In this document: positions 13,183 to 25,728 of the stretch, one piece after another
Position numbering within the stretch: the first letter of the stretch is position 1
Layout of the letters: each line of letters opens with the position of its first letter
Assembly (NCBI GenBank): GCA_034003325.1
Contig: JAVEYW010000011.1
Location: forward strand, 1 to 64,000
Source of the DNA: Desulfobacterales bacterium
GTDB lineage: Bacteria; Desulfobacterota; Desulfobacteria; Desulfobacterales; JAFDDL01
Length of the DNA: 64,000 nucleotides
Reading direction: 5' to 3'
Translations under genes and position numbers: made by a program
Notes under the pieces: generated by a model
Told to the model about the DNA's origin: nothing
What the model saw: only the letters and a program-made list of their open reading frames with translations
The model's database searches: none

Positions 13183-16100
13183 ATGTCCATTTCGCGCGAT
13201 ACGTTCGACCCGACAAAAAACTACAAGCGGGTCCGCTACCACCAGGACCGGGACCTGCTCGACTCGGAGCTCAACGAGCAGCAGGACATCATCAACCAAG
13301 AGCGCAGGAAGCTCGCGGATATCCTCTTCAAAGAAGGGGCCATCGTCAGCGGCTTCGGCGTGACGGTCGCGGCCAACGTGCTCACCGTGGCCGAAGGGAT
13401 AGTCTACATCGACGGCTGTCTGGAGCGCGTGCCCGGAGCGGTGCTCACCTACGACCCGGCCAAGACGAGCGGCGCGGATTACGTCTACGTCGAGCTTCTT
13501 AAATACAACTACGGATACAACCAGGACGCCGTGCTCATCAACCCTGCGACGGGTGAACCGACCGCGGAGCGGGAAAAGTGGGTCCTGTCGCTCAAGGATC
13601 ATGACACGAGCGGCGAGGCGTTGCCCAACAATGTGACACAGCGCAAGGTGGTCGCGGTCCACAAGTTCGACCGCGAGACCGGCGACGTGACAGCGACCGT
13701 CCGCGAGAAGTCGAATCTCTATCTGCAGGACCTGCTCGGGACGCTGCCGGGAAGCCGCATCACCGTGGCGTCGATCACCGAGGATCAACTCGCCTTCGCC
13801 GCCGCCGAGGGGCTGAACTCGCTTCTCCAGAACCTGGCCGAGCGGACTTACGACCAGGCCGGCAGTTATCTGGTCAAGGGACTCGACAGCTTCATCGGCG
13901 ACAACGACGGCGAGAACGTCGAGGTGATCACCAACGCGGGCCGCGCTTACATCCAAGGCTTCCGTCTGCAGAAAGACATGCCCACCACGACCCTGGTGCC
14001 CAAGTCCACGGCCGTCAAGTCGGTCCGCGGCGAACAGAAGACCTACGTGGTCGGCACCCGGCGCTATGCGCTCAACAACACGCCCCTCAAGGAAACCACC
14101 CAGGTCGAGGGCATCGTCGAGATCGTCTCCAACATCACCCGCGGATCGGTGGGCGGCGGCGAGGACCTGCTCGTCCCCAACCCGGTGGTGGACATCCTCG
14201 AGGTGAGCCAGGGAGCGACGGTCTTCCAGGAAGGCGCGGACTGGCAGCAATCCGGCAACTACGTGGACTGGCTGGGTTCGGGCAACGAGCCCGCCATCGG
14301 GACGACGTACACCGTCCGCTGGACCTACACCAAGCAGATGATCGAGGGGACGGACTACGCGGACGGAGGCTGGTTCGGACGCTCGGGGCACCCGACGGCG
14401 GACGAGTATTTCTACCTGGTCACCGTTCAGAGCGCCACCGGTGAGACTCAATACGATTCCGCTAAAGTCGTGTCGCGCGATACCCTGACCGGGGAAATCA
14501 ACCGCCTCTCCTGGCTGCCGGTCAGCGGGGCGACCGGGTACCGCATCTACCGCGGCACCCAGAACACGGTCCGCGCCGATTTCCAGCGGCTCAAGGACGT
14601 CGCCGCCGGGGTCACGTCGTACATCGACGACGGCGTGGACGAGATCGTGGGCGGCAACCCGCCCGCATCCAACACGAGCGGCCTGACCATGTCCCCCGTG
14701 CAGATCGAACCGGGCAACCTTTCCATCATCAACTTCGGCCGCACCGACATCGGCGACGAGCCGGTGGGCGGTTCCAACTGCAGCATCGACTATGACTACT
14801 ACATCGGACGCAAGGACATCATCTACGCCACCACCCGCGAGATCAAACGGCTGGAAGGCGCTCCGGCGGACTGGCCGAAGCTGCCCATCGTCCCGGAAGG
14901 CACGCTCGGACTGTGCAGCGTCGATTGTCCGCCGAACTCGGTTGACTTGACGGTCTTCAATTTCGGGCTGACCCGCATCACCATGGACCAGATCCACGAG
15001 ATCATCAAGGACGTCGAGGACTTGAAGTACAACGACGCCCAGTTCCAGATGAACAACGAGCTCCAGAACCGGGACGCCCAGACCAAGAAGGGCGTCTATT
15101 CCGATGACTTCTCGAACGACGCCCAGTCCGACATTTACCACAGCGAGTGGAGCGCCCGCATCGATGAGGTACGGCAATTCGCCGCCCCGAACCGAGCAGC
15201 CACGCCGCAGGTGCTCGATGTTGACTCCGCCGGGAGTGACGCCCTTTTCAAGGACAGCCTCGTTCTCCTGCCGGGCACGGAGCTCGTACTCATCGAGCAG
15301 ACCGACTGGTCCGAAGACAAGAACATCAATCCCTACGCCGTGTTCGAAAAACCAGACGCCGCCGTGGAGGTGACGCCGAATATCGGTCGGCGCGGTCAGA
15401 CAGGCGTGGCTGTGGTCGGTTCCAACTTCACCCCCGGCGCGACCGGTGTGACGGTGCGCTGCGACGGGAAGGTGGTGGCTTCAGGTCTCAGCGGCGACGC
15501 AGTGGGCAGAGTCATCGCCTCCTTCGTCATTCCCGACGATGTCCGCAACGGCAACCGCGTGGTCGAAATGACCGACGGCACCTACTCGGCGCAAGCCAAC
15601 CTTCAGGTCAACGATCCCCTGGTCATCACGCGAATCGAAAGGGTCGTGGTCAACCGCACCATCGTGCAGCGTCAGACCATCATCCAGCAGGTGCCGCCGC
15701 GCATCATCCGCGTCCCCGTGGTGCGAACCGTATGGCGCTGGCGTTGGGTGACCCGCCGCCGGGACCCGCTTGCGCAGACTTTCAGCTTCGGGGAGAACCG
15801 GGTCATCTCCGCCGTGGGGCTTCACTTCACGCAGAAAGACGCTTCCATCCCCGTAACCATTCAGATCCGCGGTGTCACGACCGGGCTTCCCAACGAGGTC
15901 ATCCTGGCCGAGAAGGTCATCGCTCCGAGCGAGATCGCCTTAGGTTCCGAGACCAAAATCGTCTTCGACGATCCCTTCTACGCGGAGGCGAACACCAGTT
16001 ACGCAGTCGTGCTGCTGACCAACAGCACCAATTACCGGGTGCGCATCGCCACGCTGGGCCGCCTGGGACAAAACGGGGTCATCACCCGTCAGACTTACAC

Positions 16101-16776
16101 CGCCGGCGTGTTGCTGGAAAGCTCGAACGCCGAAACCTGGACGCCGCTCAACAGCTCCGATCTCACCATGAGAATCTACGGCTACGACTTCCAGTCCGAA
16201 GGCGAGGTCCGCTTCCAGCCCATCACCGGTGTGCAGTTCAGCGACCTGAACCTGGATGAGTATTCGTCCATTCCGGAGGGCTGCGGCATTGTCTGGGAAT
16301 ACTCGACCGACGACGGGATGACTTGGGACGCCATTGTGCCGGCGGAAGAGGAGCGGCTGCCCAACCTCGGTGCGCAGGTGCTTGTGAGGGCGATCCTCTC
16401 CTCCAACGTTCCCAACGACTCCCCTGTGCTGAACTACAAGGACGTCAACCTCATCGGGTATCTCAACGACCCGACGGGCGCTTATTTGAACCGTGAGAAC
16501 GAACTCACCCAGGGTGTCTCCTCCACCAAGGTCTACACGCAGATGAACATCCCCAGCGGGACCACCATTGATTGGTTCGCCTCCAACGACGGCGGGTCAA
16601 CCTGGGAACCGATGTCGATCCAGATAACGCGGGAGATTGACCAGGAGTGGACGGAGTACACGCTCACCAGAACCTTCACAGATCCGAACGGAAACAAGGT
16701 CCGCTACAAGGCGGAGATGACCGGCAACAACCTGGTGTATCCGAGGATTCACACCCTCGGTGCGACGTTGAGCTGA
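13183..16776 (+). CDS. Large DUF4815-type tail protein with FN3-like and IPT/TIG domains
   Basis: 1197 residues, the largest protein of the prophage part. Residues 1-~400 fit the DUF4815 tail domain (FDPTKNYKRVRYHQDRDLLD, LNEQQDIINQERR, then GYNQDAVLINPATGEPTAER). Residues ~405-485 look like a fibronectin type III insert (ATGYRIYRGTQN), ~726-810 like an IPT/TIG Ig domain (VTPNIGRRGQTGVAVVGSNF). A Val/Arg/Trp-rich hinge follows at ~818-867, and then a jelly-roll-like part (DPLAQTFSFGENRVISAVGL). It is probably a long tail-tip or fibre-network protein contacting the host. Start ATG 13183 with TAGGAGGAAAA. Confidence 0.75.
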   Translation: MSISRDTFDPTKNYKRVRYHQDRDLLDSELNEQQDIINQERRKLADILFKEGAIVSGFGVTVAANVLTVAEGIVYIDGCLERVPGAVLTYDPAKTSGADYVYVELLKYNYGYNQDAVLINPATGEPTAEREKWVLSLKDHDTSGEALPNNVTQRKVVAVHKFDRETGDVTATVREKSNLYLQDLLGTLPGSRITVASITEDQLAFAAAEGLNSLLQNLAERTYDQAGSYLVKGLDSFIGDNDGENVEVITNAGRAYIQGFRLQKDMPTTTLVPKSTAVKSVRGEQKTYVVGTRRYALNNTPLKETTQVEGIVEIVSNITRGSVGGGEDLLVPNPVVDILEVSQGATVFQEGADWQQSGNYVDWLGSGNEPAIGTTYTVRWTYTKQMIEGTDYADGGWFGRSGHPTADEYFYLVTVQSATGETQYDSAKVVSRDTLTGEINRLSWLPVSGATGYRIYRGTQNTVRADFQRLKDVAAGVTSYIDDGVDEIVGGNPPASNTSGLTMSPVQIEPGNLSIINFGRTDIGDEPVGGSNCSIDYDYYIGRKDIIYATTREIKRLEGAPADWPKLPIVPEGTLGLCSVDCPPNSVDLTVFNFGLTRITMDQIHEIIKDVEDLKYNDAQFQMNNELQNRDAQTKKGVYSDDFSNDAQSDIYHSEWSARIDEVRQFAAPNRAATPQVLDVDSAGSDALFKDSLVLLPGTELVLIEQTDWSEDKNINPYAVFEKPDAAVEVTPNIGRRGQTGVAVVGSNFTPGATGVTVRCDGKVVASGLSGDAVGRVIASFVIPDDVRNGNRVVEMTDGTYSAQANLQVNDPLVITRIERVVVNRTIVQRQTIIQQVPPRIIRVPVVRTVWRWRWVTRRRDPLAQTFSFGENRVISAVGLHFTQKDASIPVTIQIRGVTTGLPNEVILAEKVIAPSEIALGSETKIVFDDPFYAEANTSYAVVLLTNSTNYRVRIATLGRLGQNGVITRQTYTAGVLLESSNAETWTPLNSSDLTMRIYGYDFQSEGEVRFQPITGVQFSDLNLDEYSSIPEGCGIVWEYSTDDGMTWDAIVPAEEERLPNLGAQVLVRAILSSNVPNDSPVLNYKDVNLIGYLNDPTGAYLNRENELTQGVSSTKVYTQMNIPSGTTIDWFASNDGGSTWEPMSIQITREIDQEWTEYTLTRTFTDPNGNKVRYKAEMTGNNLVYPRIHTLGATLS

Positions 16777-16789
16777 TCGGAGGAATGCC

Positions 16790-17095
16790 ATGATCGTTCG
16801 CAGACAAGGCGGATTGACCGAGTTCATTCCGTCACCACAGGAAAAACGCGAGGGCGTCCTGCGGGATCACACGCTCGATTTGCTTGCCAACCTCGACGCC
16901 CGCATGCGGCGCATCGAGGAGCGACACGGCATCTCCACGGACGCCGCCGAGGCGTTCGCCGGACTCATGGCCCGCATCCGGCGGGAGGAACTCGAAGCCG
17001 GGCGGATCAACCGGGAACTGATGGACGCCGGATACCTACATGAAGACCTGTCCGCCGCGGCGCTTGCGGCGCAGGCCGGGAGGAACCAACTATGA
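16790..17095 (+). CDS. Small helical protein, unknown
   Basis: 101 residues, alpha-helical and charged (RDHTLDLLANLDARMRRIEE, RIRREELEAGRINRELMDAG). ATG 16790 with GGAGGAATGCC. It overlaps the start of the next gene by 4 nt (ATGA). It may be a fibre-assembly chaperone, as small helical proteins between fibre genes often are, but no motif proves it. Confidence 0.5.
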   Translation: MIVRRQGGLTEFIPSPQEKREGVLRDHTLDLLANLDARMRRIEERHGISTDAAEAFAGLMARIRREELEAGRINRELMDAGYLHEDLSAAALAAQAGRNQL

Positions 17096-18405
17096 GCATC
17101 ACCATAAAGAGCAACACCGATACGATTCTGGAGCTGCCGGGGTTCACCGGAACCCTCGGACCGGGAAAGACCGCCGTCGTTCAGGCGATGACCCCTGACC
17201 TGCTCCGCGCCGTGGACCTCGGCCTGCTGCTGGTCCCCTCCGGAGCGGAACCGCCCGAGGGGCTTCCGCCGGTCGTCTTCGACCACCGCTACCCGCACGT
17301 TCTGCCTCTTGCCGCCGGGCGCGCTTACTATGTCCGTGTCCTTCGCGCCGTGGATGGTTTCCATGATGGAACCCACGCCAGAAACTTCATCGCCTATTAC
17401 GGCGACGGCGCGGGTATGACTTGCGCCTTCTCCGACGACGGCTTCGCTTGGGACACGGAAAAGAAGGTCGTCGGGATCGTGGCCAACGGCTATCACGTGG
17501 TCTGTGCGCTGGAGACCGCAAACCGGCTGCGCATCCTCTACTGGAACCCGGACGTTCCAAACCAGCCTTACGCCATGGCCGGGCTGCGAACCGCGGTCTG
17601 CGATCCGTCGGTCGACCCTGCCGCGTTCACGGTCGACACCCCATGTTCCGGCGATCTGGTTACTGAGGGAAGCGTCCAGGTCTGGAACCGCGGCCATTAC
17701 GGGCCGTCCTTCCTCTGGTACAACCCGCTGCCCACCTCGGTCGAAGGGAGACCTTTCACCTGGCGCTACGGTATGTATTTCATCGCTTCGACCGGCGGCA
17801 ACGACAGCCTCGGCCTGGCTTGCTCCGACGATGCGGTCGAATGGAAGCTGTTCGGGAACGGCCCGATCCTCTCCGGCCTGATCGATCCGCAGCCTTGGGA
17901 AGGCGCGAACGGTTATATCTCTGCCGCCCACGTCGAGCGACTCGGTGACGGGCGTTGGTGGATGCTCTACTCCGGCGGCTCCGCAGGCAACGCCGGAATC
18001 GGCTACGCATGGTCCTGGGACCGTGTCCACTGGCGTAAGGCCGAGATCAACCCCGTGTTCAAAAACGGCAGCGGGCCGTTTCTCGAGCGTTGCTACACGC
18101 CGAGCCTGGTTCAAGACGCTGGCGGCTCGCTGCTCCTCTACCGAGCGGCCAAGGACGCCACCGATTACCGGACCTTTGTTTCCCGTCTGCGGGCACCGGC
18201 CCTCGGCTGGCGGGACCTGCTCGGGCCGGACCGGCTCGACCAGGGGCTTACCGCGCGGGAAGCCATCCACCGAGGCGTCGGCACCCAGGCCGAGCGCGAC
18301 GCCGCCATCCCTGCTCCATCCGTGGGCGACGAGTGGTTCAACACCGACCTCGCCGGCGGCGGAAAGTGGGAGAAACACACAGTGACAATCTGGAAGCAGA
18401 CCTGA
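17092..18405 (+). CDS. Beta-propeller glycosidase-like tail protein
   Basis: 437 residues. From about residue 60 on there are propeller-blade motifs of the GH43/GH32/GH130 superfamily: SDDGFAWD, SDDAVEWK and SWDRVHWRK (S-x-D-G-x-x-W repeats), and GRWWMLYSGGS. The N-terminal 55 residues are a small beta attachment part. The C-terminal ~45 residues (DEWFNTDLAGGGKWEKHT) resemble a short fibre-end module. It is probably the receptor-binding or sugar-degrading enzyme of the tail. Catalytic acids cannot be fixed by eye. Overlaps the preceding gene by ATGA. Confidence 0.65.
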   Translation: MSITIKSNTDTILELPGFTGTLGPGKTAVVQAMTPDLLRAVDLGLLLVPSGAEPPEGLPPVVFDHRYPHVLPLAAGRAYYVRVLRAVDGFHDGTHARNFIAYYGDGAGMTCAFSDDGFAWDTEKKVVGIVANGYHVVCALETANRLRILYWNPDVPNQPYAMAGLRTAVCDPSVDPAAFTVDTPCSGDLVTEGSVQVWNRGHYGPSFLWYNPLPTSVEGRPFTWRYGMYFIASTGGNDSLGLACSDDAVEWKLFGNGPILSGLIDPQPWEGANGYISAAHVERLGDGRWWMLYSGGSAGNAGIGYAWSWDRVHWRKAEINPVFKNGSGPFLERCYTPSLVQDAGGSLLLYRAAKDATDYRTFVSRLRAPALGWRDLLGPDRLDQGLTAREAIHRGVGTQAERDAAIPAPSVGDEWFNTDLAGGGKWEKHTVTIWKQT

Positions 18406-18618: not shown

Positions 18619-19614
18619 ATGGACTTACGCCGGATCAACTTCGGAATCGAGATCGAGACGGTCAAACGGACGCGCGAGAGGGTCGCCCAGGCGATCCACT
18701 CGGTGGTGGGCGGCCAGGTCCGCCACATCGGCAGTCCGGGGAGCTTCGACCCCTGGGAAGTCACCGACAACCATGGACGGGTCTGGAAGGTGGTATCCGA
18801 CGGCTCGCTCATCAATGTGCCGGTCCATCTGCGGGCCGAGGTGGTGAGCCCCGTCCTGTCTTACGAGGACATCCCCGTCCTCCAGGAAGTCGTCCGGGCG
18901 CTGCGGGCCTGCGGAGCCAAGGTGGACGACCGTTGCGGCATTCACGTCCACGTCGACGCCACAGCCTTTGACGGCCGGACCCTCGCGAATCTCGCCAAGA
19001 TCGTCTACAAACAGGAAGCGCTCATCCTCACCGCTCTGGGAGTGAACGAGACCCGCCGCCGGAGCTACAGCAAGCCGGTGAGCGACGATCTCATCGCGCA
19101 GATCGAGCGACGCCGTCCCAGGACCAGGGACCAGCTCAACCACATCTGGTACGGCTACCATAATCGGCAGCCCCAGCACTACGACAGCACCCGCTACCAC
19201 GGGGTGAACCTGCACAACGTCTGGTACCGGGGCACGGTCGAGTTCCGCTGGTTCGAAGGGACGCTCCACGCGGGCAAGGTGAAAGCCTACGTCCAACTGG
19301 TACTGGCCGTGGCAGCCAAGGCGCTGAACGGCCGGGCCGCATCGAGCCGCAAGCGGTCCTTCGATCCTCAAAGCGCCCGGTACGACTTCCGGGTCTTCCT
19401 GCTCCACCTGGGGCTGATCGGGGACGAGTTCAAGACCGCGCGCAAGCATTTGATCTCCGCCCTGCCGGGGGACTCGGCCTTCAAACGTGGCAGAGTGAAA
19501 CCAGACGAACAACCCGCCCCAAAGGCGGAACCCCTCACGGAGGCCGGGCCTGAAACCCGGCCTCCGGCTTTTTCGGGTGGCGAAACTGGCGGGGCTCAAG
19601 GAGGTGCGTCATGA
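18619..19614 (+). CDS. Amidoligase (COOH-NH2 ligase, Amidoligase_2 family)
   Basis: 331 residues. The glutamine-synthetase-like fold is marked by FGIEIET near residue 9 (Mg/ATP-binding glutamates), then the [11 protein letters not shown] strand at residues ~108-118, a [10 protein letters not shown] and a [14 protein letters not shown] strand with the late catalytic Glu/Arg. These enzymes form an amide bond between a carboxylate and an amine using ATP. ATG 18619 follows AAGGAGAGACC. It starts a four-gene coupled operon whose other members process glutamine and gamma-glutamyl amides. The last ~45 residues are Pro/Glu-rich and carry a terminator-like hairpin at the DNA level. Confidence 0.85.
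19539..19572 (+). terminator. Terminator-like hairpin inside the amidoligase 3' end
   Basis: A perfect 10-bp stem (GGAGGCCGGG at 19539-19548 and CCCGGCCTCC at 19556-19565) with a 7-nt loop is followed by GGCTTTTT. It lies inside the coding frame 42 bp before the amidoligase stop, so it could cut down transcription of the three downstream genes unless ribosomes disrupt it. Confidence 0.6.
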
Positions 19615-20111
19615 GAGTGCTGATCCGAAACACCGCGCTAAATGGGCAACCGCTGGAAGATGACGGCGAGGTCTTCACCGGGGAGACATTGACCGACGTG
19701 GTCCAGGCCATGAAAGGGGCCACGCTCTTTTCCGACCAGCGGGACATCGAGGATTACATCGACATGGTCCTGCGCAACGCCAAGATGCTGGCCGGTGTCG
19801 AGCTTACGGTCCGGGGCGACACGCCAGAGGAAAAGGCCGCATCTTTCCTCGATGCGCTGATCAAACACGGTCTTGCCGAAGTGCAGGAGGACAAACCCGC
19901 CCGGATACCCATCTCCGCCCTGGTCTGGCAGGGCATCGACGCGGTCCGGCTCTCGGGGCTGACCAACATGCTCGACCGGCCGGTCGTCGCCCGGTTGGCC
20001 GGAGAGCTCGGCTGGCCCGACGCCACGCACTGGATCGAAGAGCACCCGAAGGAATATGCCGAGGGCGTCTTCCGCGGATTCATCGTCGATCCGCAGGGAG
20101 GGAAACCCTGA
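19611..20111 (+). CDS. Phage protein of unknown function in amidoligase operon (DUF5049-like C-terminus)
   Basis: 166 residues. The C-terminal half ([20 protein letters not shown], then ARLAGELGW and [14 protein letters not shown]) resembles the DUF5049-type phage domain as I remember it. The N-terminal half has [15 protein letters not shown] and a [10 protein letters not shown] helix. The start overlaps the amidoligase stop (ATGA) and its stop overlaps the amidotransferase start (TGATG), so it is made in step with both. It could be the ligase substrate carrier, a regulator or a structural partner; none of this is shown. Confidence 0.55.
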
Positions 20112-20893
20112 TGTGCGGACTCGCGGGCGTCATCTTCGGAAAAAAGCGGCGGCGCGTCGAGGAGCGGGAGCACCTCGCCTGGCTCTTCACCCGCCTACTG
20201 CTGCTGAGCGAGGAGCGCGGGCCCCATGCCACCGGCGCGGCCTGGCTCGATGCCGACGGCGGCCACCGGCTCTTCAAGCGCCCGGTTACGGCCGAGCGGT
20301 TCGTCACGGACAAGGCCTTCGCCGAACTCCTTGCCTCCATGGACAAACGCGCCGCGCTCCTGCTCGGGCACACCCGTTGGCGCACCCGTGGGGACGAACA
20401 GGTCAACAGCAACAACCATCCGATTCGCGCGGGCGAGGTGATCGGCACCCACAACGGCACCATCTACAACGCCGATTACCTCTTCCGGCGCTGGAAGATG
20501 CGACGCTTCGCCGAGGTGGACAGCGAGATTCTGTTCCGCCTGGCCGCGAACGCCGCGCGGGACGGGGCCATGGACATCGAACGGTTCAAAACCCGGCTCC
20601 GGCGCTGCCGCGGGCAGATCACCGCCGTCATCGCCTGCCGGACCGATCCGGGCACCGTCTTTGTGCTCAAGGGGAACAGGCCCTTGGAACTGCGGTGGCA
20701 TCCCCGCCGCAAGGCCGTCCTCTACGCTTCGGACCCCGCGTATCTGGACGCCGTGCTGGCGGAGGAAAAAGGCTGGAGGGAGCTTCCGGTCCCGCCCATG
20801 AGCCTGGTGGTGTTCCGGCGCGAGGACCTGGCCGCGTACTCGGTGGAGCCGTTCGAGTTCGTCGCACAGGAGAGAAAGGGGGCGGAACCATGA
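20111..20893 (+). CDS. Class II (Ntn) glutamine amidotransferase
   Basis: 260 residues. MCGLAGV at the N-terminus gives Cys2 as the nucleophile once Met is removed. Further marks of the GATase II fold are LLLGHTRWRTRG (residues ~79-90, glutamine binding), NNHPI, IGTHNGTIYN and VDSEILF. It hydrolyses glutamine to ammonia for a partner enzyme. No synthetase domain is fused, so the amidoligase is the likely acceptor partner. The next gene starts at ATGA overlap (20890). Confidence 0.9.
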   Translation: MCGLAGVIFGKKRRRVEEREHLAWLFTRLLLLSEERGPHATGAAWLDADGGHRLFKRPVTAERFVTDKAFAELLASMDKRAALLLGHTRWRTRGDEQVNSNNHPIRAGEVIGTHNGTIYNADYLFRRWKMRRFAEVDSEILFRLAANAARDGAMDIERFKTRLRRCRGQITAVIACRTDPGTVFVLKGNRPLELRWHPRRKAVLYASDPAYLDAVLAEEKGWRELPVPPMSLVVFRREDLAAYSVEPFEFVAQERKGAEP

Positions 20894-21468
20894 CAGACAC
20901 CCCAATGAACCCGATGAAGCAGGCAATGAACCCAAAAGAACCCTCGAACGCGAACACAAACGGAATGCTGAGGCTCTTCGTCTACGGCACACTGAAGCGC
21001 GGTTTCTGGAACCACGACCGCTTCTGCCGGGGAGTCCTGGCGGTGGAGGACGCCTTGGTCCGCGGCCGCCTCTTCGAGACATCCTCCGGAATCCCGGTCC
21101 TGCAGGTCCCGGAAGAGGACATCCTCGCCGTCGGGACCACCAATCCACTCGCGGACGTGGCCACACAAGCGCGCGTCGTGGCTCGCATTCCCAATCCCGA
21201 GCCAACCCCCGACCGGCTCCCGAAGAAGGGCACAGGCGCGCCCTGGGGCGACGTGTACGGGGAACTCCTCACCTTCGACGACCCCGAGACCCGCCTCCTG
21301 GCCATTGACCGGCTGGAGGGGTTTCACCCCGGAGGTCCCTGCCTCTACCGCCGCGTTTTGGTCACGGTATGTATGAACCGAGGAAAGATGCTGACTGCCT
21401 GGGTCTATGTTGCCGGAAGCAACATAAGAGGCCGGTTCAAATCGTTATCAGACGGTACTTGGCGCTGA
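20890..21468 (+). CDS. Gamma-glutamylcyclotransferase-like (AIG2/GGCT) protein
   Basis: 192 residues from ATG 20890. After a 26-residue Met/Asn/Pro-rich lead comes the GGCT signature LRLFVYGTLKRGFWNH with the substrate-binding YGTL loop, then WGDVYGELLTFDDPE and LLAIDRLEGFHP, where the Glu of the D(x)LEG motif is the expected catalytic acid. The family releases 5-oxoproline from gamma-glutamyl amides. In this operon it could remove or edit a gamma-glutamyl linkage made by the amidoligase. The lead may be an extension, with an internal ATG at 20965 as an alternative start. Confidence 0.85.
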   Translation: MTDTPMNPMKQAMNPKEPSNANTNGMLRLFVYGTLKRGFWNHDRFCRGVLAVEDALVRGRLFETSSGIPVLQVPEEDILAVGTTNPLADVATQARVVARIPNPEPTPDRLPKKGTGAPWGDVYGELLTFDDPETRLLAIDRLEGFHPGGPCLYRRVLVTVCMNRGKMLTAWVYVAGSNIRGRFKSLSDGTWR

Positions 21469-21510: not shown

Positions 21511-21539
21511 TTGACACGAACTGACACGAACTGTAAACT
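21511..21539 (+). promoter_or_regulatory. Probable sigma-70 promoter for the HTH-hsdR operon
   Basis: TTGACA at 21511-21516 and TAAACT at 21534-21539 are 17 bp apart. The -35 is part of a tandem 10-bp repeat (GACACGAACT twice, 21513-21532) that could be an operator. A second -10-like TATAAT is at 21557-21562. The first start codon is at 21601. Confidence 0.5.
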
Positions 21540-21600
21540 ACCTCTCTGTGATGAGGTATAATTAGGATAATTTTGCCCATACACTACAGAGGTGCTTCTG

Positions 21601-21795
21601 ATGGAAAACAAATCGGACAACATCCTGACCATAGAGGAGTTATCCGTTTACCTAAAAATTCCCAAGTCGACGCTCTACAAGCTCGTCCGAGAGGGCAAAA
21701 TCCCGGCCCAAAAAGTGGGACGACACCTGCGCTTTTTTCGGGAGTCCATCGACGAATGGATGAAGCGGCAAAATGAGCCTGGGAGGCAGGGGTAG
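21601..21795 (+). CDS. Excisionase-family helix-turn-helix protein
   Basis: 64 residues. It is a complete HTH_17/excisionase (MerR-like) fold: LTIEELSVYLKIPKSTLYKL, then REGKIPAQKVGRHLRF and IDEWM. Such proteins bind DNA as small regulators. I chose ATG 21601 over GTG 21592; AGAGG is at 21588-21592. It precedes hsdR by 2 nt and probably controls the restriction operon, although an excisionase role for the neighbouring prophage is possible. Confidence 0.75.
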   Translation: MENKSDNILTIEELSVYLKIPKSTLYKLVREGKIPAQKVGRHLRFFRESIDEWMKRQNEPGRQG

Positions 21796-21797
21796 CC

Positions 21798-24170
21798 ATG
21801 GCCTTGAACGAAGCCGATACCTGCCGCCGCTATATCGTCCCCAAGCTCCAAGCAGTGGGGTGGGATGACGAACCGCACCGCATCAACGAGCAGGTCACTT
21901 TCACCGATGGCCGCATCATTGTGTCCGGCCGCCAGGGACGCAGAAGACCCGGAAAGCGCGCCGACTACATTCTTCGTTACCGCCCTGATATGCCCATAGC
22001 CGTGGTCGAAGCGAAACCCTCATATGCCAACCCTGGCCAGGGTCTTCAACAGGCTAAGGAATATGCGGAAATCCTCGGCCTAAAATTCGCTTACGCGACC
22101 AACGGCCAAGGTATCGTGGAATTTGACTACATTACCGGTCTCGAGCGTGAGATAGCAGATTTCCCCACACCGGAAGAACTGTGGGCGCGTTTGGTCAATT
22201 CGGAGCGTCTCAGCCCCGAGTTGGCGGAACGTCTTCTTGCGCCGGCCTATCATTTGAGCGGCAAATCGCCGCGCTACTACCAGGAGATCGCCATCAACAG
22301 AACCGTTCAGGCGGTTCTTCAGGGACGCCGTCGCATCCTGCTGACAATGGCTACTGGGACGGGCAAAACCGTCGTGGCGTTCCAGATCTGCTGGAAGCTT
22401 TGGTCATCGCGCTGGAACCGAACCGGGGACTACCGGAGGCCTCGAATTCTGTATCTGGCGGATCGCAATGTCCTGGTCGATGACCCTATGGCCAAGATAT
22501 ACGCTCCCTTTGGCGATGCGCGCTGGAAAATAGAGGGGGGCGTGGCCAACAAGAGCCGGGAAATGTACTTCACGATCTACCAGGCCATCGCTCGAGACGA
22601 ACGCAGACCTGGACTCTATCGCGAATATTCGCCGGATTTCTTTGATTTGATCATCGTGGACGAGTGCCACCGAGGAAGCGCCAAGGACGATAGCAATTGG
22701 CGGGCTATACTTGCGTATTTCGAACCTGCATTCCAGGTGGGGATGACGGCAACCCCGCGGCGACAGGATAACGCCGATACATACCGTTACTTCGGAGATC
22801 CCATCTACCAATACAGCCTTCGCCAGGGGATCGACGATGGGTTCCTGGCCCCCTATCGGGTCCACCGCGTCATCACCACTTGGGACGCGGCGGGTTGGCG
22901 TCCGAGCCAGGGAGACCTTGACCGCTACGGCCGGGAAATCCCGGACGATGAATACCGCACCAACGATTTCGAACGAATCGTGTCTTTGAAAGCCAGGACT
23001 GAGGCCGTCGCCAGGCATTTGACCGAATTTCTAAATAAGACAGGGCGATTCGACAAGACCATCGTCTTTTGTGTCGATCAGGAGCACGCCGATGAGATGC
23101 GCCGCGCGCTGAACAACCTGAATTCCGACCTGGCCCGCCAACATTCCGATTACGTGTGCCGCGTCACGTCCGACGAGGGCGGCATCGGTCGAGGCCATCT
23201 GAGCAATTTCCAGGACGTTGAACGCCGGACACCGGTCATTTTGACCACATCGCAGATGCTGACCACGGGCATAGACGCGCCGACGGTCCAGAACGTCGTG
23301 CTCGTCCGGGTCATCAACTCGATGACGGATTTCAAACAGATCATTGGGCGAGGGACCCGTGTCCGGGACGATTACGGCAAGTTCTTTTTCAGCATCCTCG
23401 ATTACACCGGGTCTGCCACCCGCATGTTCGCCGACCCGGACTTCGACGGTGACCCGTCCATTGAAACGGAGCAGCATATCGACGAGGAAGGCCGGCCCAC
23501 CGATTCGGAAGCGGTCATGACGCCGGAGGAAGAACCCGAAGCAGGCGACGAGGTGATTGTCGATCCACTCCCTCCGGATGAAGGCGCTCCCGCCGAAAGG
23601 CGCAAATTCTACTTCGATGGCGGCCAGGTCGAGATTGCCGCCCACCTTGTCTATGAGCTTGACGCCGACGGTAATCAACTCAGGGTCGTACACTTTACAG
23701 ACTACACCGCGGAAAAGGTGCGGACGCTTTATCGGAACGCGGCCGAACTTCGGAATGACTGGGCTGACCCCAACCATCGGAAAGAGATTATCTATAAATT
23801 GGGCGAACGGGGCATCGATTTCGACGCGTTGGCTTCAATGGCGGATCAACCCGATGCCGACCCTCTCGACCTCCTGTGCCATATCGCCTTTAACGCTCCG
23901 TTGCGGACACGGCGCGAGCGCGCCCAGCGCCTGCGCTCCGAGAAAAAGGATTTCTTCGATCAATATGGCCCCGAGGCGCGGGAAATTCTCGGTGAACTTC
24001 TCGATAAATACACCGAGCATGGCACCGCCCAATTCGTCATCCCTGATGTGTTGGAGGTTCCTCCAATCAGCAAACGTGGGAATGTAATTCAGATTGCCCG
24101 TTATTTCGGTGGTGAAGACCGGCTGGTCGAAGCGATTCGAGAACTGCAAACGCTGCTCTATGCGGCTTAA
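21798..24170 (+). CDS. hsdR: Type I restriction enzyme R subunit (EcoEI-like)
   Basis: 790 residues, normal for the EcoEI R family. The N-terminal nuclease has ADYIL and VVEAKP (D...ExK) at residues ~55-75. The helicase shows Walker A MATGTGKT, DECH in IIVDECHRGS, motif III GMTATPRR and motif VI IIGRGTRVRDD. The EcoEI-type C-terminal domain follows a Glu/Asp-rich linker at ~575. It would translocate and cut DNA with HsdM and HsdS. It appears intact, but the M subunit downstream is broken and no S subunit is present. It starts right after the HTH gene. Confidence 0.92.
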   Translation: MALNEADTCRRYIVPKLQAVGWDDEPHRINEQVTFTDGRIIVSGRQGRRRPGKRADYILRYRPDMPIAVVEAKPSYANPGQGLQQAKEYAEILGLKFAYATNGQGIVEFDYITGLEREIADFPTPEELWARLVNSERLSPELAERLLAPAYHLSGKSPRYYQEIAINRTVQAVLQGRRRILLTMATGTGKTVVAFQICWKLWSSRWNRTGDYRRPRILYLADRNVLVDDPMAKIYAPFGDARWKIEGGVANKSREMYFTIYQAIARDERRPGLYREYSPDFFDLIIVDECHRGSAKDDSNWRAILAYFEPAFQVGMTATPRRQDNADTYRYFGDPIYQYSLRQGIDDGFLAPYRVHRVITTWDAAGWRPSQGDLDRYGREIPDDEYRTNDFERIVSLKARTEAVARHLTEFLNKTGRFDKTIVFCVDQEHADEMRRALNNLNSDLARQHSDYVCRVTSDEGGIGRGHLSNFQDVERRTPVILTTSQMLTTGIDAPTVQNVVLVRVINSMTDFKQIIGRGTRVRDDYGKFFFSILDYTGSATRMFADPDFDGDPSIETEQHIDEEGRPTDSEAVMTPEEEPEAGDEVIVDPLPPDEGAPAERRKFYFDGGQVEIAAHLVYELDADGNQLRVVHFTDYTAEKVRTLYRNAAELRNDWADPNHRKEIIYKLGERGIDFDALASMADQPDADPLDLLCHIAFNAPLRTRRERAQRLRSEKKDFFDQYGPEAREILGELLDKYTEHGTAQFVIPDVLEVPPISKRGNVIQIARYFGGEDRLVEAIRELQTLLYAA

Positions 24171-24179
24171 GGGAAGATA

Positions 24180-24938
24180 ATGGCAAAACGAACTAAAAAA
24201 GTGACCCAACCCAAAACCACGGCCGAGCGTCTGGGCAGCGTCATCAAGTCATGCCGGCAGATCATGCGCAAAGACAAGGGTCTCTCCGGCGACCTGGACC
24301 GGCTGCCGCTCCTGACGTGGGTCATGTTTCTCAAGTTTCTCGATGACTTGGAGCAGATCGAAGCGTCGCGCGCCAAGATGAGGGGAACGAAATACCGCCC
24401 GACCGTCGAACCGCCTTACCGGTGGCGTGATTGGGCCGCTCAGGAAAATGGTGTTACCGGTCAGGAGTTGATCGCCTTCATCAACCAGGAAGAGGCTGTC
24501 CGGCCCGATGGGACCAAAGGTCAAGGGCTGTTCGCCTACCTGAGCGGCCTGCACAACGGCCCTACCAGCCGCAAGCGCGTCATCGCCAGCGTCTTCAGCC
24601 GCCTGGCTAACCGAATCCAGTCCGGCTACATCCTGCGCGACGTGATCAATCAGGTCAACGCGATCCATTTCGAGGCCCAGGATGAGCTTTTCACCCTCGG
24701 CCACCTCTATGAATCCATGCTGCGGGAGATGCGAGACGCGGCCGGCGACTCGGGCGAGTTCTACACGCCGCGTCCGGTGGTGCGCTTCATGGTCGAGGCC
24801 CTTTATCCGCGCCTCGGCGAGACGATCCTTGACCCGGCCTGCGGCACCGGCGGTTTCCTGGTGGAGTCCTTCAACCACCTGGGCAAACAGGTCAAGACCG
24901 TGGAGGATAGGCGGGTGCTTCAAGGAGAAAGTTCCTGA
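24180..24938 (+). pseudogene. hsdM: Truncated type I methylase M subunit
   Basis: 252 residues with the HsdM N-terminal helical domain (LLTWVMFLKFLDDLEQIEAS) and the beginning of the methylase: GEFYTPRPVVRFMVEAL and SAM motif I LDPACGTGGFLVESF. The frame ends about 25 residues after motif I. Motif IV (NPP[FY]) and the rest, normally 250 or more residues, are missing. It cannot methylate DNA. The break lies at about 24930, where the sequence changes to one leading into the HNH gene. Confidence 0.85.
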
Positions 24939-24978
24939 TGACGCGGATCACAAGGCTCGGCCGAAATCTGGGGGACTT

Positions 24979-25728
24979 ATGAAAGGCAGCGGAGAAATGC
25001 CCCAACCCGATGACCAAGCGCGCAAGCGCCCGAAACAGCGCAAGTCGGTTTCATCCTTGTCGAGCAAGAAGCTCTATCAAGAAGCCGACAATCGCTGTCC
25101 GTTCTGTGGTATCGCGGATGTGGCTGTACTGGAGATTCATCATATCGATGAAGACCCCTCGAACAACAAGATCGAAAACCTGATTGTCGTGTGCAGGAAC
25201 TGCCACTCCAATATCACGCGCGGGGAGATTTCACCGGCGGATGTCCACTCGAAGAAGATGGAACTGTTCTGGACGCACAGGGCATCACCCCGGCGGTCCG
25301 AAAAGAGCCCCAGGCAGTCGGTGAACGTGAATGCCGCGAGTGTCAGCAGCAGCATTATCGCCAACACCGTGACCTTCGGCCGCAAACGGTCGCCCCGGAT
25401 GCAATACCCGGTGGATTCCATCGGCGCGGACACCATCAAGAAGGGGTACATCGACTATCTGATCAAGCGCTACTTCGATTATCGTCAGGCCGACGCCAGC
25501 TACGGCAGTTTCCGTCCCTTCAGCCATGCCGAAATTCACACCAGCATTCAGCGAAGGTTCAAGGCAAAAACGTTCTTTATCCATGCTTTGCGTTTCGCGG
25601 AACTTTGCGTATTCATCAAGGGGCGGGTGGACCAGACCATTCAAGGCAAGCGTAATCGCTCGCGTGGCATTCCGAACTACGACGCATTTGAAAAATACGA
25701 GGCGGAGCAACTGCGGCATGGCCAATGA
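24979..25728 (+). CDS. HNH endonuclease-domain protein
   Basis: 249 residues. Residues ~37-75 carry a zinc-HNH: CPFCGIADV, then EIHHIDEDPSNNKIENLIVV and CRNCHSNI (CxxC...HH...N...CxxCH). The middle is Ser/Arg-rich. The C-terminal ~120 residues (YIDYLIKRYFDYRQADASY, FRPFSHAEIHTSIQRRF) form a helical domain of unknown role. It follows the broken hsdM, so it may be a mobile or restriction-linked nuclease inserted during decay, or a defence nuclease taking the place of the lost subunits. Confidence 0.75.
   Translation: MKGSGEMPQPDDQARKRPKQRKSVSSLSSKKLYQEADNRCPFCGIADVAVLEIHHIDEDPSNNKIENLIVVCRNCHSNITRGEISPADVHSKKMELFWTHRASPRRSEKSPRQSVNVNAASVSSSIIANTVTFGRKRSPRMQYPVDSIGADTIKKGYIDYLIKRYFDYRQADASYGSFRPFSHAEIHTSIQRRFKAKTFFIHALRFAELCVFIKGRVDQTIQGKRNRSRGIPNYDAFEKYEAEQLRHGQ

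What the first reader, a model, noticed from the sequence alone, without database searches (positions are those of the whole stretch)
18619..21468. Four-gene coupled amide-ligase operon at the end of the prophage
Amidoligase, a 166-residue unknown, class II glutamine amidotransferase and gamma-glutamylcyclotransferase overlap one another by ATGA or TGATG. Together they could make, feed with ammonia and remove an amide or gamma-glutamyl tag. Comparative-genomic work on amidoligases has predicted such sets, but to my knowledge the product is not known. Its place behind tail genes suggests tagging of host wall, phage protein or a small molecule, possibly to exclude rivals or evade host defence.
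Basis: partly seen in the sequence, partly recalled or inferred. Interest (0 to 1): 0.75.

Follow-up and report, generated by a model that had tools for sequence, protein, structure and literature searches.

The report
Phage amidoligase cassette with DUF5049 partner
A prophage carries four tightly joined genes whose enzymes should build and break amide bonds; the same gene order recurs in related phages from many bacteria, so the set acts as one unit, but what it modifies is still unknown.

Summary
Four co-directional ORFs at 18619-21468 overlap by ATGA, TGATG and ATGA: an Amidoligase_2, a 166-aa protein, a class II glutamine amidotransferase and a GGACT-type gamma-glutamyl cyclotransferase. 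Catalytic residues are intact and all four genes are under purifying selection. The order is conserved: in all 28 loci with an amidoligase at least 63% identical and enough downstream DNA, the same four slots follow in order. The 166-aa "unknown" resolves into two small domains, a new N-terminal domain and DUF5049, each found alone in other phages. DUF5049 lies directly behind an amidoligase in at least 73 of 80 viral loci, against 0 of 48 for a control gene, so it is a dedicated amidoligase partner. Comparable cassettes (LUZ24, phiEco32, clostridial prophages) are known and predicted to modify peptidoglycan, untested. This is a new variant of a known kind; substrate and purpose remain open. 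The cassette is not the end of the element: in relatives a conserved ~340-bp block, usually with an HTH_17 gene, follows, then an exchangeable defence operon (type I RM, BREX, others), so the prophage seems to have a defence cargo slot next to the cassette.

The parts
18619..19614 (+). Amidoligase_2 (331 aa), GS-like fold
   Evidence: PF12224 E 6e-64, phrog_2443 E 3e-84; AF2 pLDDT 91, best PDB matches YbdK, glutamine synthetase, weaker Dop; all A1-invariant residues present, e.g. GIEIE, HVH, EFR
19611..20111 (+). 166-aa accessory protein = NTD (aa 1-91) + DUF5049 (aa ~101-156)
   Evidence: DUF5049 E 7e-9; the two domains occur separately in other cassettes; AF2 pLDDT 87, pTM 0.55, two domains; no PDB match
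20111..20893 (+). Class II glutamine amidotransferase (Ntn, Cys2 after Met), GATase_6
   Evidence: aligned to GlmS 1xff: HTRW, HNG and (V/T)DxE motifs conserved
20890..21468 (+). GGACT / AIG2-like gamma-glutamyl cyclotransferase; candidate catalytic Glu143
   Evidence: PF06094 E 7e-18; invariant Y32, G33, D140, E143, Y153, Y173 across 17 homologues; profile hits PDB ytfP, AIG2-like domain protein
19538..19571 (+). Strong hairpin with T-run inside the amidoligase 3' coding tail, possible attenuator
   Evidence: 11-bp stem then CTTTTT; z -2.5; kept in 6 relatives
21592..21795 (+). HTH_17 small regulator-like gene, in the conserved block before the cargo
   Evidence: PF12728 E 5e-18; promoter-like site 21511-21539; homologous blocks in relatives
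21798..24938 (+). Defence cargo in this genome: type I RM hsdR and a short hsdM ORF
   Evidence: NF046051 EcoAI-type R subunit; PADLOC REase_I, MTase_I
13183..17095 (+). Upstream late genes: DUF4815 tail-type protein and 101-aa protein, kept in front of the cassette in relatives

Best explanation
A phage-borne amide-bond module. Shown: the four genes are a conserved, overlapping unit under purifying selection in a family of temperate phages, with intact catalytic motifs and a GS-like amidoligase fold. Inferred: the amidoligase activates a carboxylate with ATP as an acyl phosphate and joins it to ammonia delivered by the amidotransferase or to an amine, giving a gamma-glutamyl-type amide; the NTD-DUF5049 protein has no enzyme signature and acts as a dedicated non-catalytic partner of the amidoligase (docking ligase to amidotransferase or presenting the substrate); the cyclotransferase cleaves gamma-glutamyl groups with a free alpha-amine as 5-oxoproline, so it trims or unmasks the product. 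Because relatives keep ligase + cyclotransferase without the amidotransferase, formation and removal of a gamma-glutamyl amide is the likely core. The late position suggests expression with virion genes. The likeliest target is an envelope or peptide component, in the interest of phage or lysogen, but that last step is a guess.
For: Order conserved in 28 of 28 informative loci with amidoligase >=63% identical, across several host phyla and several phage backbones. Residues intact. GS-like fold. dN/dS <1 for all four. DUF5049 directly downstream of an amidoligase in 73 of 80 viral loci versus 0 of 48 for a control HNH gene; natural GGCT-DUF5049 fusion in L235. Similar sets in LUZ24-like (PMC3890496), Pseudoalteromonas RIO-1-like (PMC5498523), clostridial (PMC11318856) and Arthrobacter phages.
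Against: No biochemical test of any member was found. Substrate unknown. GGCT has the most relaxed selection (dN/dS 0.33-0.44), so the removal step may matter least. One standalone DUF5049 (L192) has no amidoligase within 5 kb. A GC-rich hairpin with a T-run between gene 1 and 2 could uncouple gene 1 from the rest.
Confidence: 0.6

Rival explanations
1. Peptidoglycan or surface amidation that blocks superinfection (the literature view for phiEco32/LUZ24-type cassettes): the ligase amidates or extends a carboxylate in the stem peptide or surface polymer with ammonia from the amidotransferase.
For: Proposed for homologous cassettes (PMC5498523; PMC11318856); an amidotransferase plus ligase amidates peptidoglycan in S. 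aureus (MurT/GatD, PMC3267633); prophage context and a defence slot next door.
Against: Prediction only. From general enzymology, cyclotransferases of this fold need a gamma-glutamyl residue with a free alpha-amine, which D-Glu in the stem peptide lacks. None of the four proteins showed an export-type family match; localisation was not tested.
Confidence: 0.25
2. Small-molecule or nucleotide chemistry with gamma-glutamyl as temporary protecting group (butirosin-like logic), for instance for a modified base or a defence-evading metabolite.
For: A ligase and an AIG2-like cyclotransferase that add and remove gamma-glutamyl is the known butirosin logic (own knowledge); core ligase + GGCT persists without amidotransferase; fold relation to carboxylate-amine ligases.
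Against: No base-modifying kinase or transferase was found in the stretch examined here, though the early region of the prophage is not in this window and was not searched; no other biosynthetic genes in the cassette.
Confidence: 0.2
3. Auxiliary nitrogen metabolism: the set liberates ammonia and glutamate for the host.
For: Proposed for phage-ZRK32 of a deep-sea planctomycete (PMC10945688).
Against: The proposal rests on whole-phage growth effects, not on the genes; it does not explain the dedicated DUF5049/NTD protein or its link to the ligase.
Confidence: 0.08
4. DUF5049 is a Pup-like small protein that the GS-like amidoligase attaches to targets.
For: Standalone DUF5049 proteins are often 57-70 aa, sit next to a GS-like ligase, and 41 of 64 distinct copies carry Gly-Glu within the last ten residues; Dop is among the structural matches of the ligase.
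Against: The copy here ends GGKP and has no terminal Glu; many standalone copies have residues after the Gly-Glu; the domain is predicted well folded, unlike Pup; it is fused to other domains.
Confidence: 0.05

Closest known systems
Phage amidoligase / 'peptidoglycan modification' cassettes (phiEco32, LUZ24, PaP3, tf, RIO-1; Iyer 2009, Hardies 2013 as cited in PMC5498523)
   Same: Amidoligase, class II amidotransferase and gamma-glutamyl cyclotransferase encoded together in a phage
   Different: Those also carry an ATP-grasp and a second ligase, and sit among early/replication genes; NTD and DUF5049 not detected in the LUZ24-like record tested. Here four genes, late position, temperate phage
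Firmicutes phage amidoligase-GGCT pairs (Ca. Heliusvirales; C. clostridioforme prophages, phrog_2443 + phrog_2520)
   Same: Same amidoligase family (about 35-42% identical) followed by GGCT; often a second ligase, in part with DUF5049
   Different: No amidotransferase; extra Zn-ribbon-like small protein; placed before the terminase
Arthrobacter phage cassettes (e.g. Waltz)
   Same: GGCT, amidoligase, amidotransferase adjacent
   Different: Order GGCT-ligase-GAT; no NTD/DUF5049
Glutamine synthetase / carboxylate-amine ligase fold (YbdK, GS, PafA/Dop)
   Same: Predicted fold of the amidoligase
   Different: No sequence match to a solved structure; separate family

Membership tests
Amidoligase_2 (PF12224) | Score above curated cut-off over the full domain | tested here: met
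   216.6 bits vs cut-off 22, profile 2-244 of 245
Amidoligase_2 (PF12224) | Conserved active-site motifs and GS-like fold | tested here: met
   All residues invariant in 15 homologues present; Foldseek to YbdK and GS E 3e-5 to 9e-4
DUF5049 (PF16468) | Score above curated cut-off | tested here: met
   36 bits vs 28.7
Class II glutamine amidotransferase | N-terminal Cys and glutamine-site motifs | tested here: met
   MCG start, HTRW, HNG, VDSE aligned to GlmS
Gamma-glutamyl(amine) cyclotransferase | YG(T/S) motif and catalytic Glu | tested here: met
   VYGTL and Glu143 of LEG invariant; activity and substrate class not tested
Phage amidoligase cassette (LUZ24/phiEco32 type) | Amidoligase + amidotransferase + GGCT in one phage cluster | tested here: met
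Phage amidoligase cassette (LUZ24/phiEco32 type) | Additional ATP-grasp and COOH-NH2 ligase genes | tested here: not met
   Absent from the four-gene cluster and its direct neighbours
Peptidoglycan modification system | Altered cell wall chemistry | not testable with these tools
   needs muropeptide analysis
Pup-type modifier (for DUF5049) | C-terminal Gly-Gly-Glu/Gln used for conjugation | tested here: not met
   C-terminus here is GGKP; Gly-Glu in standalone copies is often followed by further residues

The most novel reading that the evidence does not exclude
The cassette is an unrecognised phage-versus-phage exclusion system built on gamma-glutamyl/amide tagging, with DUF5049 (and NTD) as its dedicated targeting or acceptor protein, carried beside an exchangeable defence cargo slot of the same prophage.
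Probability: 0.15. Interest if true: 0.8.

Novelty: new variant of a known kind. Interest (0 to 1): 0.52.

Why it matters
Amidoligase cassettes recur in unrelated phages and their product is not known. This work gives a compact four-gene version with catalytic residues intact, and gives a domain of unknown function (no paper in the searched library mentions DUF5049) a firm functional link: it is an amidoligase partner. That makes the open question directly testable by co-purification and mass spectrometry of a four-gene set. The neighbouring cargo slot offers a place to look for defence systems in little-studied anaerobes.

Tried and rejected
(1) A shared C-terminal CADK in homologues of the 166-aa protein looked like a peptide tag; it is the +1 reading of the overlapping ATGTGCGGA start of the amidotransferase, seen in NTD-only and DUF5049-only versions alike, so an overlap effect. 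(2) The 65-77-aa protein after GGCT in Firmicutes phages was first taken for DUF5049; its sequence is Zn-ribbon-like, so it was kept apart. (3) Pup-like role of DUF5049: disfavoured. (4) Structural search of the 166-aa model against PDB gave nothing; against viral models only weak matches to unnamed small proteins. (5) A viral scan with the amidotransferase alone found no relative, a limit of its patterns. (6) The NTD scan gave 3 loci only, so NTD linkage outside these cassettes is not established. (7) Attachment sites were not found: recombinase searches place a 540-aa serine recombinase about 60 kb from the cassette in three relatives, which fits one prophage unit, but attR was not mapped. 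(8) The 2009 amidoligase paper (PMC3268129) is not held; its content is known here only through papers citing it.

Full report
What is there. The four ORFs at 18619-21468 are as described: 331, 166, 260 and 192 aa, overlapping by ATGA, TGATG and ATGA. Family searches name gene 1 Amidoligase_2 (E 6e-64), gene 3 a class II glutamine amidotransferase (GATase_6, E 1e-17) and gene 4 a GGACT/AIG2-like cyclotransferase (E 7e-18); gene 2 carries DUF5049 on residues 107-151 (E 7e-9). PHROGs agree for genes 1, 3 and 4. Amidoligase_2 is single copy in this genome and occurs in only 6 of 58 sampled genomes of the order (this one included), as expected for mobile genes.

Are the enzymes intact? The amidoligase keeps every residue that is invariant across 15 homologues down to 29% identity, including GIEIE, HVH and EFR. 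Its AlphaFold2 model (pLDDT 91) matches YbdK, glutamine synthetase, bifunctional glutathione synthetase and, weaker, the depupylase Dop, a GS-like fold, with no sequence match to a solved structure. The amidotransferase starts MCG and aligns to GlmS with HTRW, HNG and the Asp motif. The cyclotransferase keeps YGT and Glu143, invariant in 17 homologues, and its profile finds ytfP and AIG2-like domain protein structures. dN/dS against close relatives is 0.03-0.07, 0.11-0.18, 0.04-0.11 and 0.33-0.44 for genes 1 to 4. All four are under purifying selection, the cyclotransferase least.

Is the order conserved? In 28 of 28 loci with amidoligase identity of at least 63% and at least 1.6 kb of downstream DNA, the order is amidoligase - (NTD and/or DUF5049) - amidotransferase - GGCT. 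Shorter contigs show as much of it as they hold. Labelled sources include Desulfosarcina, Desulfofustis, Desulfobulbus, Desulfocarbo, Ectothiorhodospira, Opitutaceae, Pontiellaceae, Lentisphaerae, Armatimonadetes and planctomycete MAGs (MAG labels may reflect binning). Many have the same DUF4815 tail gene in front; others (L012, L014, L018) show the cassette without that gene within 6 kb, so it moves between phages. Below about 60% identity the amidotransferase disappears and the order becomes amidoligase - GGCT - NTD, or amidoligase - GGCT in Firmicutes. Ligase + cyclotransferase is therefore the core, and the amidotransferase an addition of this lineage.

The 166-residue protein. It is a fusion of two small domains. 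Residues 1-91 (NTD) occur alone as roughly 80-115-aa proteins in other cassettes; residues about 101-156 (DUF5049) occur alone, often as 57-70-aa proteins. The model has two folded parts and low inter-domain certainty (pLDDT 87, pTM 0.55). A viral scan with DUF5049 gave 80 loci: 73 have an amidoligase ORF directly upstream (at most 562 bp). Of the other seven, L222 also has an amidoligase upstream but its DUF5049 escaped the profile, L205, L209, L218 and L234 begin at contig ends, L235 is a natural GGCT-DUF5049 fusion next to amidoligases, and only L192 is a true exception. A control gene from the same phage group (HNH endonuclease, 48 loci) never has an amidoligase directly upstream; 20 of 48 have one somewhere within 5 kb, and DUF5049 appears in 8 loci, all with an amidoligase. 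Many of these pairs stand without GGCT or amidotransferase nearby, so DUF5049 belongs to the ligase itself. No paper in the library mentions DUF5049.

Mechanism. Shown: conserved unit, intact motifs, fold, partner link. Inferred: ATP-dependent activation of a carboxylate, amidation by ammonia from glutamine or by an amine, a non-catalytic partner, and removal of gamma-glutamyl groups as 5-oxoproline. The substrate is not known. The published view for comparable cassettes is peptidoglycan modification against superinfection (PMC5498523, PMC11318856), stated there as hypothesis; phage-ZRK32 authors propose nitrogen metabolism (PMC10945688). The cyclotransferase chemistry fits a free gamma-glutamyl-amine better than the stem peptide of peptidoglycan (general enzymology, not tested here).

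Surroundings. Relatives are tailed temperate phages: upstream of the cassette the Desulfosarcina alkanivorans element has tape measure, neck, head, portal and terminase genes, and a 540-aa serine recombinase lies about 60 kb from the cassette in G058, G060 and G063. Behind the cassette, relatives share a block of about 340 bp, with an HTH_17 gene in most; homology then stops and the cargo differs: type I RM (window, L003, L004, L006, L111, L108), BREX-type BrxC/PglY (L010, L088, L089, L090, L099, L106, L107), a ZorD/DpdE-like helicase (L007), methyltransferase systems (L096, L100). Pairs from different sources share the cargo region at high identity (L010/L107 91%, L090/L091 89%, L106/L178 95%, L006/L095 94%, L097/L098 99% with an efflux operon). 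This is best read as a cargo slot of the prophage, though attR was not mapped. In the window the cargo is a type I RM whose hsdM ORF is only 252 aa.

Verdict. A real, conserved four-gene module and a new variant of a known kind. New here: the split of the unknown protein into NTD and DUF5049, the near-strict tie of DUF5049 to amidoligases, the core/accessory division, and the defence cargo slot next door. The function is open but now testable.

Noticed in passing
window 21592-24938; L003, L004, L006, L007, L010, L088-L091, L095, L096, L099, L100, L106-L108, L111, L178 downstream of GGCT: Exchangeable defence cargo (type I RM, BREX, ZorD/DpdE-like, methyltransferase systems) directly behind a conserved ~340-bp block that usually holds an HTH_17 gene, next to the amidoligase cassette.
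   Followed up: partly
window 24180-25728: hsdM ORF is only 252 aa and is followed by an overlapping ORF with an HNH-like sequence; the RM system is probably not functional in this genome.
   Followed up: no
window 19538-19571: Perfect 11-bp GC-rich hairpin with T-run inside the amidoligase 3' coding tail, kept in 6 relatives (L091 has a large insertion in its loop).
   Followed up: partly
L235:4938-6038: Natural fusion of gamma-glutamyl cyclotransferase and DUF5049 in one 366-aa ORF.
   Followed up: partly
L042-L087, after GGCT: 65-77-aa protein with Zn-ribbon-like CPRCG/CPDCG motifs next to GGCT in Firmicutes phages, a further small cassette member.
   Followed up: no
window 17092-18405: 437-aa protein without family match between the tail genes and the cassette; missing in more distant relatives such as L003.
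   Followed up: no
L093, L097, L098 downstream of GGCT: TetR (L097, L098) and RND-type efflux genes in the cargo position, 84-99% identical between different genera; possibly another prophage cargo.
   Followed up: no
L088-L092: Prophage DNA about 88-93% identical to the window in MAGs labelled Phycisphaerae, Ozemobacter, Anaerolinea and UBA2219; wide host range or binning error.
   Followed up: no
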